The translations under genes and the position numbers were made by a program. The notes beneath the pieces are model-generated. The model was not told where the DNA came from. It ran no database searches and saw nothing but the letters and a program-made list of their open reading frames with translations. Below, piece by piece: positions 987 to 11,128 of a stretch of 55,098 nt of DNA. Numbering within the stretch: position 1 is the stretch's first letter; each line of letters starts with the position of its first letter. The DNA comes from a virus, in the IMG/VR virus record IMGVR_UViG_3300021197_000270, positions 1 through 55,098 of that record, one strand, 5' to 3'.

Positions 987-1013
987 GGGGCGGAGCAATC
1001 CGCCCCTTTTTTT
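987..1013 (+). terminator. Strong intrinsic terminator
   Basis: A perfect 8-bp stem GGGGCGGA (987-994) and TCCGCCCC (999-1006) with a GCAA loop is followed by seven T. It closes the first early unit. The same GGGGCGG/CCGCCCC core recurs in the hairpin at 10146-10168. Confidence 0.9.
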
Positions 1014-5515: not shown

Positions 5516-5948
5516 AGCGATTTACATTTTTGAAGATGAGCATGACCACGTTGGAAGACCAGACGAGGTTTACGTTTACAAGCATTATGACAACTACCCA
5601 GAAGGTGCGGTGGATTTCATTGAGAACGCCAAGGAGTTCGCATGGGAGTTGCCACGGTTTGAGGCTGACGAGTTTGCGGCATCGTTTGTTGCGGCGAACA
5701 AGGATCGGAAGGGTGGCGGCATTCGTTTGGTCAACGCGAGTTTCAAGGATCGTGATGAGATGTTGGAGGCCAATCATTGGTGCGACTATCATTATGTGAT
5801 CTCAAAACATAACAGCCAAGATTTGTGGATTGAGATTTGGGACAGCCGTTATGACATGGATTCGGATGATACGGCTTGGGTTTTGATTGACGAGTTAACG
5901 CATACGGAGATGAAGGAGAAATACGGTGAACGTGCTATCGCTGTTTGA
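5505..5948 (+). CDS. Conserved phage protein of unknown function (147 aa)
   Basis: The protein opens MGTRAIYIFEDEHDHVGRPD and continues VYVYKHYDNYPEGA, ELPRFEADEFAASFVAANK and GGGIRL. This pattern occurs widely among phage and prophage hypothetical proteins. No known catalytic motif is evident. GGAGGAAGACA precedes the start. The coding sequence carries the AAGGAG ribosome site of the methyltransferase, whose GTG start lies 23 bases before this gene's stop. Confidence 0.75.
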   Translation: MGTRAIYIFEDEHDHVGRPDEVYVYKHYDNYPEGAVDFIENAKEFAWELPRFEADEFAASFVAANKDRKGGGIRLVNASFKDRDEMLEANHWCDYHYVISKHNSQDLWIEIWDSRYDMDSDDTAWVLIDELTHTEMKEKYGERAIAV

Positions 5949-7122
5949 CGGAATGTCATGTGGGAGGCTGGCTCTTGAAAGGGCTGGCTTTCCTATCCAC
6001 AACTACTTTGCCAGCGAGATCGACAAGTATGCGATTGAGGTGGCGAGAGCCAACTATCCTGACACGGTGCATCTGGGTGATGTAACCACCGTAACCACAA
6101 AGCATGGTCGTCTTTTTTACGAGGATGAAAACGGTGTTGGGTGTGGCGCGGACATTGATCTGTTGATCGGCGGCTCACCCTGTCAGGGATTTTCGTTTGC
6201 CGGCAAGCAACTCAATTTTGACGATCCGCGTTCCAAACTTTTCTTTGAGTTCGTGCGGCTGTTGAAAGCGTTGAAGCCAAAGTATTTCCTGTTGGAAAAC
6301 GTCAACATGAAGAAAGAATATCAGGACGTTATATCTGACCTTCTGGGATGCAAGCCTATAGACATCAACTCAAACCGTGTAAGCGCGCAGAATCGGCGCC
6401 GTTTGTATTGGACGAACATTCCAGTCAAGTCCTTGCCGGAGAACAAGCATATCTATTTGAAAGACATCTTGGAGGATGGGTTCACGGATCGGGATAAGTC
6501 GCATTGCATAGACGCGAACTACTTCAAAGGCGGCAATCTGAAATCGTATTTTCAGAAGAACCGCCGCCAGCTTGTGTTTGATTTTGACGATCAGACGGAA
6601 GACGGCTTGCAGTTGGCTGGTGAGGCAGACCTAAAGGGTCACGGCTACAATCGCCGCGTCTATCATCCGGATGGCAAGGCGCCAAGTTTGTGTGCGAACT
6701 CTGGCGGCAATCTTGAACCAAAAGTCGTGGTGGTAGGTGAGGCCGAGGGCAATTCGTTTTATCAGGAGCGCAAGGTTTATGATCCGGAGCACAAGAGTCC
6801 AACTCTTACCGGCCAGCGGTCAAGCAACGTGCCAAAGATTCTTCAAGTGCCAAGGGGCAAGAACCAAGGTGGTATAAAAGCGGAGGATGGGAAGGTTCCC
6901 ACGTTGAGCGGATCGTCATGGGAGCATAACAATTTCTTGGCGGTTGATGGTATGAAGTGGCGCAAGTTGACGCCCATTGAATGTGAGCGGTTGCAGACCG
7001 TGCCGGACAACTACACCAACCATGTGTCGAACACCCAGCGTTATCGGATGTTGGGCAACGGCTGGACGATTGACGTAATCTGTCATCTGCTAGGGGGCAT
7101 GAAGGATGCTGTCGATCAGTAA
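5926..7122 (+). CDS. DNA (cytosine-5) methyltransferase
   Basis: 398 residues with canonical C5-methylase motifs. Motif I is SLFDGMSCG (residues 5-13, SAM binding) and motif IV is GGSPCQGFS with catalytic Cys86. ENV at 124-126 is motif VI, NRVSAQNRRRLYW is motif VIII, and the C-terminal MLGNGWTIDV is motif X. The start is GTG with AAGGAG upstream. Between motifs VIII and X (about residues 235-330) lie three related units: VYHPDGKAPSL, VYDPEHKSPTL and AEDGKVPTL, an unusual repeated target-recognition region. No cognate restriction enzyme is in the window, so it is probably an orphan methylase protecting phage DNA from host restriction. Confidence 0.92.
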   Translation: MNVLSLFDGMSCGRLALERAGFPIHNYFASEIDKYAIEVARANYPDTVHLGDVTTVTTKHGRLFYEDENGVGCGADIDLLIGGSPCQGFSFAGKQLNFDDPRSKLFFEFVRLLKALKPKYFLLENVNMKKEYQDVISDLLGCKPIDINSNRVSAQNRRRLYWTNIPVKSLPENKHIYLKDILEDGFTDRDKSHCIDANYFKGGNLKSYFQKNRRQLVFDFDDQTEDGLQLAGEADLKGHGYNRRVYHPDGKAPSLCANSGGNLEPKVVVVGEAEGNSFYQERKVYDPEHKSPTLTGQRSSNVPKILQVPRGKNQGGIKAEDGKVPTLSGSSWEHNNFLAVDGMKWRKLTPIECERLQTVPDNYTNHVSNTQRYRMLGNGWTIDVICHLLGGMKDAVDQ

Positions 7123-9101: not shown

Positions 9102-9672
9102 TGATAATAAAATCTTAGATTTCACAATTACTTTGTACTCAAACAAGTTGAAGATTGTGAAGGAGGTGGTCTGTAAGCCCACCGAAGTGGAGAAGGTGAT
9201 TGATGAGTTGGACAAACAAGCCAGCATCCCCAGAAGGGGAGACGGTCACCATGGTTACTACATCGAGGTCGAAGTAAGGAGGCATAAGGATGTATATAGG
9301 AAACCAAACGGTGTTGATAAACGACACCCTAAACCTGCTACGCGGAAAGCTAGTGCGGTTCATTCTGGAGGACGGGGACATGCGGATGATCGCAAACCTC
9401 GTGGCAACAGCGGACGAACTGGGTCTGGAGTACGATCAGGAGTCGATGACGTATCGGGATCGAAAGGGCGAGGAGGCAAGACGCAAGAGCCGAGCGCAAC
9501 TAGCAAAGGAACTAGAGCCAGGACTCAATGCACTGTTCGGGACGGATTACGCAAGACACGACCCGAACCTAAGTCCGGAGGAAAGAGAGCAGATGCTGAA
9601 GGAGGCAAAGCGTCTGGAGGCAAACCGCAAGGCGCGAGAAAAGTATCACGCAAAAAAGAAAGGCAAAGCTAA
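9094..9672 (+). CDS. Uncertain ORF: plausible N-terminus with shadow tail
   Basis: Residues 1-65 look like a real small protein (beta strand DFTITLYSNKLKIVKEVV, then helix EVEKVIDELDKQA). From about residue 66 on, the frame lies under the gene at 9290 and becomes low-complexity Gly/Arg/Lys/Ser, typical of an alternative-frame shadow. Its stop forms TAATG with the ribbon-helix-helix gene at 9672. A natural gene ending near 9290 that lost its stop, or a sequence error, is the simplest explanation. Confidence 0.4.
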   Translation: MANDNKILDFTITLYSNKLKIVKEVVCKPTEVEKVIDELDKQASIPRRGDGHHGYYIEVEVRRHKDVYRKPNGVDKRHPKPATRKASAVHSGGRGHADDRKPRGNSGRTGSGVRSGVDDVSGSKGRGGKTQEPSATSKGTRARTQCTVRDGLRKTRPEPKSGGKRADAEGGKASGGKPQGARKVSRKKERQS

Positions 9673-9703
9673 TGGCAGCAAAGCGCGGAAGACCTCAAGT
9701 TGA
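9290..9703 (+). CDS. Early protein carrying an 18-residue copy of the capsid N-terminus
   Basis: This 137-residue protein has AAGGAGG seven bases before its start. Residues 1-65 are unrecognised (MYIGNQTVLINDTLNLLRGK...). Residues 67-84 read SRAQLAKELEPGLNALFG, identical to residues 4-21 of the major capsid protein at 42798-43709. Twelve of these 18 codons differ and every difference is synonymous, so the peptide is kept by selection in this frame. A basic helical tail follows (EREQMLKEAKRLEANRKARE, then KKKGKAN). It may interact with the capsid assembly machinery or mimic the capsid N-terminus. Confidence 0.8.
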   Translation: MYIGNQTVLINDTLNLLRGKLVRFILEDGDMRMIANLVATADELGLEYDQESMTYRDRKGEEARRKSRAQLAKELEPGLNALFGTDYARHDPNLSPEEREQMLKEAKRLEANRKAREKYHAKKKGKANGSKARKTSS

Positions 9704-9848
9704 GGAGAAGGCGGCTTTTCGTAACGTAGCGGTCCCGATAGAAATCTACGACATGATCCGCAAGTTATCCAAGGCTGAAGAGCGGACGATTGCTAGGCAA
9801 TTAGCTGTTCTGATTAAAGAAGCATACCATCGTAAATTGGAGGTTTGA
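9672..9848 (+). CDS. Ribbon-helix-helix-like small protein (58 aa)
   Basis: The frame opens at ATG 9672 (MAAKRGRPQV) and ends TGA 9846-9848. The pattern FRNVAVPIEIYDMIRKLSKA followed by EERTIARQLAVLIKEAYHR fits a ribbon-helix-helix (Arc/CopG-like) DNA-binding fold: one beta strand, then two helices. The basic KRGRP start could contact the minor groove. It is likely a dimeric repressor acting on phage promoters; the candidate operators are at 23-38 and 12998-13010. Overlaps the previous gene by 32 bases. Confidence 0.7.
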   Translation: MAAKRGRPQVEEKAAFRNVAVPIEIYDMIRKLSKAEERTIARQLAVLIKEAYHRKLEV

Positions 9849-9849
9849 T

Positions 9850-10065
9850 ATGTTTGGTAAGTTTATGAAGATGTTTTTCCCTATGTTTGTTTCGGAACCG
9901 GAACGTGCGCGGGATGAGAAGGGTCGCCTTGTTGGGGACGACAAGAAGACTCCTACGTTTAATGAAGCGTGGGTCGGGGGTCAGGCGCCGGCAAAGAAGG
10001 TTGCACCCAAGCCGCTACCGAAGAAGCGTGGCAGGCCAAAGGGTAGCAAGAATAAGAAAAAATGA
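9850..10065 (+). CDS. Small basic protein with AT-hook
   Basis: 71 residues starting MFGKFMKMFFPMF, an amphipathic or hydrophobic N-terminus, and ending in PKKRGRPKGSKNKKK. That end contains a GRP core flanked by basic residues, as in AT-hook minor-groove binders. GGAGG (9839-9843) gives a good start. It overlaps the following ArfA-like ORF as ATGA. Possibly a nucleoid or DNA-associated factor; the hydrophobic N-terminus may tether it to the membrane. Confidence 0.7.
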   Translation: MFGKFMKMFFPMFVSEPERARDEKGRLVGDDKKTPTFNEAWVGGQAPAKKVAPKPLPKKRGRPKGSKNKKK

Positions 10066-10211
10066 AACGCAATCCGCTGGCACGCAAGATCCGTGAGCCG
10101 AGGTTCAGGAAGCGTGTCGTAAAATCCAAGAAGGTATATACAAGGAAGGGGCGGTCAATCCGCCCCTTTCATATTAAGAAACACCTCTTAGCAAAGCAGA
10201 TTCTTTTATGA
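10062..10211 (+). CDS. ArfA-like ribosome-rescue peptide with internal terminator
   Basis: A 49-codon ORF overlaps the previous stop (ATGA). Residues 11-30 read REPRFRKRVVKSKKVYTRKG. This matches the core of the rescue factor ArfA (xP-x-FRxRV-x3-KK-x-Y-x-RKG), which recruits RF2 to ribosomes stalled on mRNA without a stop codon. A terminator-type hairpin (10146-10168) lies inside the coding sequence, before the stop at 10209. Transcripts should therefore end near codon 35 without a stop, the arrangement known for bacterial arfA. The similarity is short, and a phage-specific basic peptide remains possible. Confidence 0.6.
   Translation: MKRNPLARKIREPRFRKRVVKSKKVYTRKGRSIRPFHIKKHLLAKQILL
10146..10172. 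terminator. Intragenic, bidirectional terminator hairpin
   Basis: AAGGGGCGG (10146-10154) pairs perfectly with CCGCCCCTT (10160-10168) around TCAAT, followed by TTTCATATT. It lies between the convergent 9850-side run and the gene ending at 10174, and inside the ArfA-like ORF. The T-tract is short on both strands. Confidence 0.7.
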
Positions 10212-10423: not shown

Positions 10424-10522
10424 TTAGAACAGACTCAGCTGCTCCGGCTCGCGCATGATCTCGTCTATGTCTTTATGCATGATCTCGGTAAACTCACCAG
10501 CCGACCACCATGAAATGATCAT
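10424..10522 (-). CDS. 32-aa peptide ending in a sliding-clamp-binding motif
   Basis: The ATG overlaps the stop of the XF1762-like gene (ATGA). The product opens MIISWWSAGEFTEIMHKD and ends EQLSLF. QLSLF at the extreme C-terminus is the canonical beta-clamp-binding pentapeptide of polymerases and clamp loaders. The WWSAG opening is also the usual start of phage PAPS-reductase-like proteins that follow XF1762 genes in other phages. This may therefore be an internally deleted relic, or a purposeful clamp-binding micropeptide. Confidence 0.5.
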   Translation of the reverse strand: MIISWWSAGEFTEIMHKDIDEIMREPEQLSLF

Positions 10523-10971
10523 GCTTCCCACCTAAACTTCAGCTGCCCATAGATTGGTTGCCACTCCCGACTCCGATTCTTGCGATCCCAGCCCTGCGAG
10601 GTGGGCTTGACCTCCCCGACAATCTTCCAACCGGCGCCTCGAAGCGAGGAGCCAGACTCTTCTTGCAAGGTATATGTCACCATGCGTTGACCACCCATTT
10701 GTTGCCAAATTCGCCAACACCGCCCGTAAAGAAAACTGCACGAGTTTTTGGGTGCGTGATCTACAACGCAAACTCTGGTAACCTCGGCTGTCACCCCATC
10801 GTCTAGCATCCGAGCTACGGGTCTGCCCACAATGGCTACCCCGACAAGTTCGCCTGCATAGGTTGCCCCGATAGCAAACTTACCCCCGCCAGTAGGTTTG
10901 TTGTGGCGGTGAAAGTTATCTACGAACTCGTTCGCCTCACGAATGCTGATCGGTGTTACCGTTAACTTCAC
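10519..10971 (-). CDS. XF1762-family GNAT-like protein
   Basis: Starting at GTG 10971, where GGAGA lies eight bases upstream, the 150-residue product reads MKLTVTPISIREANEFVDN, then HRHNKPTGGGKFAIG, VAIVGRPVARMLDDG, EVTRVCV and TYTLQEESGSSLRGAGW. This is the XF1762 family, an acetyltransferase-like fold widespread in phages. Activity and substrate are unknown. An upstream ATG at 11046 would extend it by 25 residues into the overlapping zinc-ribbon gene and is less likely. Confidence 0.85.
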   Translation of the reverse strand: MKLTVTPISIREANEFVDNFHRHNKPTGGGKFAIGATYAGELVGVAIVGRPVARMLDDGVTAEVTRVCVVDHAPKNSCSFLYGRCWRIWQQMGGQRMVTYTLQEESGSSLRGAGWKIVGEVKPTSQGWDRKNRSREWQPIYGQLKFRWEA

Positions 10972-11128
10972 AAGCCTGTTCTCCGGTGCAACATTCACTG
11001 ATAACCAGATGACATACCGAGCATTGTATGTGCCCATGGACATCAACTGGCGGCATCATCGTCTGGCATCGAGGGCAATGCCCCCGTGCTAATCGTTCTG
11101 CAAAAGTACCGTCACCCTGATCTATCAC
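10937..11128 (-). CDS. Small zinc-ribbon protein, GTG start
   Basis: The GTG start at 11128 has GGAGA six bases upstream. The 63-residue protein contains CPRCQTMM, then CSVCHLVISECC and a further Cys, a typical zinc ribbon. It is probably a nucleic-acid- or protein-binding adaptor. It overlaps the XF1762-like gene by 35 bases and the upstream exported-protein gene by 17, so it lies inside a tightly coupled leftward unit from the helicase. Confidence 0.7.
   Translation of the reverse strand: MIDQGDGTFAERLARGHCPRCQTMMPPVDVHGHIQCSVCHLVISECCTGEQACEVNGNTDQHS

What the first reader, a model, noticed from the sequence alone, without database searches (positions are those of the whole stretch)
10062..10211. 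ArfA-like ribosome-rescue ORF with a terminator hairpin inside the coding sequence
The 49-codon ORF contains REPRFRKRVVKSKKVYTRKG, which follows the ArfA core pattern, and a 9-bp hairpin with a short T-tract (10146-10172) precedes its stop. Cellular arfA genes use just this trick: the mRNA ends without a stop codon, so the factor accumulates only when trans-translation is overwhelmed. A phage copy would protect translation during host mRNA decay. If real, this is an unusual phage ribosome-rescue system.
Basis: partly seen in the sequence, partly recalled or inferred. Interest (0 to 1): 0.83.

Follow-up and report, generated by a model that had tools for sequence, protein, structure and literature searches.

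The report
Phage ribosome-rescue gene without usable stop
A virus of bacteria, related to the abundant SAR11 phages, carries a tiny relative of the bacterial ribosome-rescue protein ArfA, and a transcription-stop hairpin sits before its stop codon, so the messenger RNA probably ends without a stop signal; this arrangement recurs with unrelated hairpins in many phages, which suggests that phages carry their own self-regulated ribosome rescue.

Summary
ORF 10062-10211 encodes a conserved core of about 30 codons (purifying selection, median pN/pS 0.30) homologous to E. coli ArfA. ArfA is the only significant PDB family with the phage profile (E 1.3e-4), and profile-profile comparison with cellular ArfA gives E 1.3e-6. 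It is not a Pfam ArfA (PF03889) member: the window ORF gets no hit, and three residues of KKGKGSY are missing. It belongs to PHROG_20887, whose members match both PF03889 and DUF7230 (unknown function). An 11-bp hairpin (10144-10170, -22 kcal/mol, z about -6) begins inside the YxRK codons and precedes any stop. Where family members have a terminator, it lies before the stop in 23 of 26, against 0 of 23 for other ORFs in the same loci, with about 12 hairpin types (phiN3, Atu_ph07, Acinetobacter phage Morttis). Cellular ArfA genes place the hairpin at the same codon. The phage is related to HTVC023P-type pelagiphages; HTVC027P gp30 was already called ArfA. Best reading: a phage ArfA-like rescue factor made from non-stop mRNA and held down by host trans-translation. 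Rescue activity and RNA 3' end are inferred, not shown. I found no report of the non-stop design in phages.

The parts
10062..10211 (+). ORF of 49 codons encoding the ArfA-like peptide; mechanical stop TGA at 10209-10211
   Evidence: PHROG_20887 E 8.9e-8
10062..10151 (+). Conserved core MKRNPLARKIREPRFRKRVVKSKKVYTRKG (residues 1-30), aligned to E. coli ArfA 11-44
   Evidence: purifying selection
10144..10170 (+). 11-bp hairpin GGAAGGGGCGG-TCAAT-CCGCCCCTTTC, starting inside the YTRK codons and before any in-frame stop; predicted terminator and/or RNase III site
10167..10175 (+). Short interrupted T-tract TTTCATATT; predicted RNA 3' end about 10172-10175, giving a non-stop peptide of about 37-38 residues (inferred)
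   Evidence: sequence; stronger T-tracts in sister loci L032, L033
9850..10065 (+). Upstream small gene (71 aa, ends KKRGRPKGSKNKKK); its TGA stop overlaps the arfA-like ATG (ATGA), suggesting translational coupling; the same sequence context is in L001 and L002
10174..10407 (-). Convergent ORF (77 aa) whose stop codon (TTA on + strand, 10174-10176) abuts the hairpin; the ORF tail after the hairpin is antisense to it
987..1013 (+). Internal comparison: near-identical hairpin GGGGCGG-AGCAAT-CCGCCCC followed by 7 T, placed after the TAA (979-981) of another phage gene, i.e. this phage uses the same hairpin as an ordinary terminator elsewhere

Best explanation
The ORF is a phage-borne ArfA-like ribosome-rescue factor of minimal size. 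Shown by sequence: a conserved 30-codon core homologous to the functional core of ArfA, followed at once by a strong hairpin that comes before any stop codon. Inferred: transcription ends at the hairpin (or RNase III cuts it), so the mRNA has no stop codon and ribosomes stall at its end. When host tmRNA-SmpB is free, the peptide is tagged and degraded. [quoted passage not shown] The peptide would thus be made only when the cell needs it. Probability: ArfA homology about 0.9; non-stop mRNA about 0.8; ArfA/RF2-type rescue activity about 0.7.
For: Profile of 16 phage members against PDB: the six E. coli ArfA entries are the only significant hits, E 1.3e-4 to 4.4e-4; with the window ORF alone they are also the only hits at all (E 0.5-1.2). 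hhalign of 57 phage members against 9 cellular ArfA: probability 90.6, E 1.3e-6, aligned end to end with one 3-residue gap. Composition control: E. coli ArfA scores 24.2 bits, best of 3000 shuffles 8.3; 49 of 57 phage members exceed the 99th percentile of their own shuffles with the cellular profile. Pfam on the 57 members: 16 hit ArfA (best 3.1e-4), 25 hit DUF7230. Bridges with a full K-[RK]-G-[KR]-G-S motif: Cr30 passes the PF03889 cut-off; HTVC027P gp30 has KKGRGSFKR. Non-stop architecture: family 23 before stop, 1 straddling, 2 after; 627 control ORFs in the same loci 0, 2, 21, Fisher 7e-11, and 4e-7 when counted by about 12 hairpin types. In 5 of 8 cellular ArfA genes the stem starts 1-6 nt before the end of the YxR[KE] codons, as in the window (5 nt before). 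Conservation stops at the hairpin: after identical hairpins the tails differ completely. A G-C to C-G double change keeps the stem in L032 and L033. The predicted product of 37-38 aa reaches past the residue equivalent to Asn47, the shortest active E. coli ArfA (PMC5378476). E. coli arfA is known to be regulated this way (PMC3989581).
Against: Window ORF itself: no Pfam or NCBIfam hit at E up to 10. The GKG of KKGKGSY is missing, and of the RF2-contact patch Leu19-Leu24-Phe25 only Phe is kept at the aligned position (Lys9, Arg14, Phe15). The diverse profile A2 gives only E 0.014 in PDB. The T-tract at 10167-10175 is weak. About two thirds or more of family members have no in-frame terminator by the strict test; many marine ones carry an ordinary stop, including HTVC027P gp30. 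No RNA 3' ends and no activity data exist here.
Confidence: 0.72

Rival explanations
1. ArfA homology is right, but the hairpin is only a shared terminator between two convergent gene sets; the missing stop is incidental and has no regulatory meaning.
For: The hairpin does lie between convergent genes, and the stop codon of the minus-strand ORF abuts it. Many relatives have a normal stop and no hairpin, so non-stop design is not required for function.
Against: Stop loss is seen with about 12 different hairpins across the family, 23 to 2, while other ORFs of the same loci show 0 to 21. In phiN3 the next genes run in the same direction yet the terminator is still in frame before the stop. The position at the YxRK codon equals that in cellular arfA.
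Confidence: 0.14
2. The peptide binds ribosomes through its ArfA-like tail but acts against the host, for example plugging the mRNA channel or blocking tmRNA-SmpB, rather than rescuing.
For: The RF2-contact half is the less conserved half and the basic tail is nearly invariant (K-S-K-K, Y, R, K); GKG is missing.
Against: N-terminal positions are also conserved (N, P, A in 90% or more), the region that folds on RF2 in ArfA; bridging members keep both halves. The non-stop design fits a conditional rescue factor, not a dominant inhibitor.
Confidence: 0.09
3. A small phage nucleic-acid-binding basic peptide, unrelated to ArfA, similar by lysine and arginine content only.
For: The ORF is very basic and short; the upstream genes encode GRP-type basic ends.
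Against: Shuffles of equal composition do not reproduce the match; ArfA stands alone among 177,635 PDB sequences; the register, the tail motif and the non-stop architecture all coincide.
Confidence: 0.04
4. Spurious ORF: the hairpin is real, the coding sequence is not.
For: In several phage records the gene is unannotated.
Against: Purifying selection on the core (median pN/pS 0.30) across 110 distinct loci.
Confidence: 0.01

Closest known systems
ArfA (YhdL) of E. coli and other Proteobacteria, PF03889
   Same: Homologous core (E. coli residues 11-44 align with window residues 2-31), basic YxRK tail, hairpin inside the ORF at the same codon, size of predicted product.
   Different: Lacks three residues of KKGKGSY; scores below detection with PF03889; only about 30 conserved residues; carried by phages.
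DUF7230 (PF23876), family of unknown function
   Same: 25 of 57 family members match it, Acinetobacter T4-like phage members far above its cut-off (51.7 against 27 bits).
   Different: The window ORF itself gets no match; the family has no assigned function. The continuum seen here suggests that DUF7230 is ArfA-like.
PHROG_20887 (and PHROG_2701), unknown function
   Same: Window ORF E 8.9e-8; all 57 members match PHROG_20887.
   Different: Only a sequence cluster; no function or gene architecture recorded.
HTVC027P gp30, pelagiphage ArfA (PMC12753301); Citromicrobium phage RXM g10 (PMC8953757)
   Same: Phage ArfA annotations; HTVC027P is a relative of this phage (TerL 58.8% identity) and gp30 shares the NPVAKExRTPKY half; gp30 was reported highly expressed at 3 h and 12-15 h.
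   Different: gp30 has a near-classical KKGRGSFKR tail and an ordinary stop; no non-stop mRNA is mentioned in the passages found.
BrfA of Bacillus subtilis and ArfT of Francisella
   Same: RF-recruiting rescue factors; brfA also has a terminator before its stop codon (PMC8012679).
   Different: No sequence match was seen in any search here; not tested profile to profile.

Membership tests
ArfA (PF03889) | Pfam PF03889 score at or above the gathering cut-off (25.5 bits) | tested here: not met
   Window ORF: no hit at E up to 10. Relatives: 16 of 57 weak hits, best E 3.1e-4; Cr30 does pass with 28.9 bits.
ArfA (PF03889) | Homology over the functional core | tested here: met
   Profile against PDB E 1.3e-4; hhalign E 1.3e-6; shuffle control.
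ArfA (PF03889) | KKGKGSY motif | tested here: not met
   SKKVY in the window, three residues shorter; HTVC027P gp30 and Cr30 keep K-[RK]-G-[KR]-G-S.
ArfA (PF03889) | Basic C-terminal tail for the mRNA channel, at least to the E. coli Asn47 equivalent | tested here: met
   YTRKGRSIRPFH; predicted end at residue 37-38, Asn47 equivalent is residue 34 (alignment; limit from PMC5378476).
ArfA (PF03889) | Hydrophobic RF2-contact patch (Leu19, Leu24, Phe25 in E. coli) | tested here: inconclusive
   Phe25 equals Phe15; Leu24 is Arg14 and Leu19 is Lys9 in the window; several relatives have Leu at the Leu24 position (PMC5378476).
ArfA (PF03889) | Non-stop mRNA made by a hairpin inside the ORF | tested here: met
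   By sequence only: hairpin before stop, recurrent in the family, same position as in cellular arfA. RNA ends not measured.
ArfA (PF03889) | RF2-dependent peptide release on ribosomes stalled on truncated mRNA | not testable with these tools
   Needs biochemistry or complementation.
ArfA (PF03889) | Tagging and degradation by tmRNA, accumulation without it | not testable with these tools
   Needs expression in hosts with and without tmRNA.
DUF7230 (PF23876) | Pfam PF23876 score at or above cut-off (27 bits) | tested here: not met
   No hit for the window ORF; relatives hit.
PHROG_20887 | Profile match | tested here: met
   E 8.9e-8 over residues 2-29.

The most novel reading that the evidence does not exclude
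Phages of SAR11-like bacteria, Rhizobiales, Caulobacter and Acinetobacter carry a distinct, minimal, mostly GKG-less ArfA lineage (PHROG_20887/DUF7230) whose non-stop mRNA works as a sensor of trans-translation load during infection. It gives ribosome rescue of a second kind to hosts that mostly lack ArfA (a survey found arfA in 0 of 2,376 alphaproteobacterial genomes, PMC11633108), possibly as a defence against host RNases and mRNA-cutting toxins.
Probability: 0.35. Interest if true: 0.85.

Novelty: new variant of a known kind. Interest (0 to 1): 0.7.

Why it matters
If true, phages bring their own ribosome-rescue factor and have kept, or repeatedly re-evolved, the same unusual stop-less mRNA that bacteria use to make the factor respond to trans-translation load. 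It would give a function to DUF7230 and PHROG_20887, now 'unknown', in about a hundred sequenced phages. It would put ArfA-type rescue into Alphaproteobacteria and their phages, where a survey reports none. It is directly testable: one 37-residue peptide in an E. coli strain that cannot live without ArfA or tmRNA.

Tried and rejected
Pfam, NCBIfam and tblastn against known phages with the window ORF alone gave nothing; only the family profile or a consensus peptide finds the relatives. PF03889 search of the window record: none. Plasmid collection: none. A classical-ArfA query against phages found nothing by tblastn, although HTVC027P and Cr30 do carry such genes: tblastn is too weak for peptides this short, so absences from it mean little. 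A looser terminator definition gave many doubtful long stems; replaced by a stricter one with controls. A chance hairpin was rejected by shuffles. Composition-driven similarity was rejected. Structure prediction was not run: ArfA-type peptides order only on the ribosome with RF2, so a lone model would not discriminate. No tree was built: 28 columns carry too little signal.

Full report
What is there. The window is a 55,098-base virus record of a tailed phage (DNA polymerase A, primase, terminase). Its terminase is closest to the phage 023Pt_psg01 (60.6%), pelagiphage HTVC027P (58.8%) and lake phage DSL-LC04, i.e. HTVC023P-type pelagiphages and relatives, but its G+C of 0.487 leaves the host open. 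ORF 10062-10211 encodes MKRNPLARKIREPRFRKRVVKSKKVYTRKGRSIRPFHIKKHLLAKQILL*. Its ATG overlaps the stop of the gene before it (ATGA). An 11-bp hairpin spans 10144-10170 (-22.2 kcal/mol, z -5.9), before any in-frame stop and against the stop codon of a convergent ORF.

Is it a gene, and where does it end? 24 close viral loci were found with the ORF and 80 loci with the profile (a few of them the same); with phage records and bacterial genomes there are 110 distinct loci. The core of 28 codons is under purifying selection: pN/pS 0-0.47 against the window, median 0.30 over 247 pairs. Conservation stops at the hairpin. In the window group the hairpin is the same, but the residues after it are unrelated: IKKHLLAKQILL (window), YASHLNFSCP (L001), YVNDPALSVV... 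(L003), IRRASAVRAGA (L005). So the part encoded after the hairpin is not a conserved protein.

Is it ArfA? The window ORF alone gives no Pfam or NCBIfam match, but its only PDB matches, weak ones, are ArfA. The profile of 16 members matches E. coli ArfA with E 1.3e-4 and nothing else significantly. Profile against profile with 9 cellular ArfA: E 1.3e-6, aligned from N to YxRK with a single gap where the phage lacks GKG. Of 57 members, 16 match PF03889 and 25 match DUF7230; all 57 match PHROG_20887. Intermediates exist: Caulobacter phage Cr30 (KPRKGKGSFTRKGK) and two bacterial-genome members, L134 and L136, pass the PF03889 cut-off; HTVC027P gp30 joins the phage-type N-terminal half to a KKGRGSFKR tail. 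I conclude homology with ArfA, in a sister subfamily that is not PF03889 as defined.

Is the hairpin meaningful? A strict terminator definition (at least 7 pairs, at most -13 kcal/mol, at least 5 T in 8) was applied to the family and to 627 mechanical ORFs of at least 120 codons in the same loci. Family: 23 before the stop, 1 straddling, 2 after. Controls: 0, 2, 21. Fisher 7e-11 over members, 4e-7 over about 12 hairpin types; members are related, so the second number is the fairer one, and the grouping into types was made by eye. The hairpin types are unrelated in sequence (e.g. GTCAAGG/CCTTGAC in L010, GGTCGGAGG/CCTCCGACC in L021, TCGCCGGG/CCCGGCGA in phiN3, AAAGGACC/GGTCCTTT in Morttis), so the arrangement was kept or regained many times. 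Positive control: in 5 of 8 PF03889-type cellular genes tested the stem begins 1-6 nt before the end of the YxR[KE] codons, all before the stop; the window stem begins 5 nt before the end of YTRK. The same phage uses a near-identical hairpin with 7 T after the TAA of another gene at 987-1013. The window's own T-tract is weak; in sister loci L032 and L033 it is long, and there the stem is kept by a G-C to C-G exchange.

How it most likely works. In E. coli, arfA mRNA is cut by RNase III or terminated at a stem-loop inside the ORF, the product is tagged by tmRNA and degraded, and truncated active ArfA accumulates only when trans-translation is overwhelmed (PMC3989581). ArfA is active when cut at Asn47 but not when shorter, and its tail sits in the empty mRNA channel while its N-terminal part holds RF2 (PMC5378476). 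The phage product predicted from RNA ending near 10172-10175 has 37-38 residues; the Asn47 equivalent is residue 34, so all of the needed tail is made. These steps are inferred from anatomy and homology; none was measured. Open points: only Phe of the Leu19-Leu24-Phe25 RF2 patch is kept in the window, and GKG is missing.

What is known. ArfA has been named in two phages: HTVC027P gp30, highly expressed early and late in infection (PMC12753301), and Citromicrobium phage RXM g10 (PMC8953757). Neither passage read mentions a non-stop mRNA, and I found no paper on DUF7230. The other phage members found here were 'hypothetical protein' or unannotated. A survey reports arfA in 0 of 2,376 alphaproteobacterial genomes and none in Caulobacter crescentus (PMC11633108); here 20 of 289 genomes sampled from the class of a Pelagibacteraceae genome match the phage-type profile, some with in-frame terminators. 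Whether those are prophage or resident genes was not settled.

Limits. More than two thirds of members show no in-frame terminator by the strict test, many with ordinary stops, so the non-stop design is one of two states of this family.

Noticed in passing
window 10519-11046 (-): Mom-like DNA modification gene downstream, convergent to the ArfA-like gene (PHROG_1384 E 1.5e-40, Pfam Mom above cut-off).
   Followed up: no
window 5926-7122 (+): DNA methyltransferase-like protein of 398 aa (PHROG_116 E 6.1e-76).
   Followed up: no
L113, L123, L111, L118, L121 (Acinetobacter T4-like phages): In close relatives the same terminator lies before, across or after the stop codon (Morttis before, Tonic straddling, Ac42, Acj9 and 133 at or after): a natural series for testing whether the non-stop state matters.
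   Followed up: partly
L131, L135, L136, L137, L139, L148 (genomes of the class of a Pelagibacteraceae genome): Bacterial-genome relatives of the phage-type family; five (L135, L136, L137, L139, L148) have in-frame terminators by the scan, L131 by eye; L136 is a hybrid KKGRKVYTRK. A survey reports no ArfA in Alphaproteobacteria (PMC11633108).
   Followed up: partly
L161 30923-31039 (HTVC023P): A family-like ORF (KKNLIAKLLRLPILRMRIIKNKKKYNRKK) lies in another frame inside annotated gp46; overlapping gene or chance in A+T-rich sequence is undecided.
   Followed up: no
L114, L109, L116 (Rhizobium phage P10VF, Ochrobactrum ORM_20, Agrobacterium Atu_ph07): The gene is missed in annotation, probably because the ORF runs past its functional end or is very short.
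   Followed up: no
window 9850-10065 and 9672-9848 (+): The two genes before it carry GRPKGSK or KRGRPQ basic AT-hook-like ends; the earlier one is RHH-like (PF07878 E 1.1e-5, just below its cut-off).
   Followed up: no
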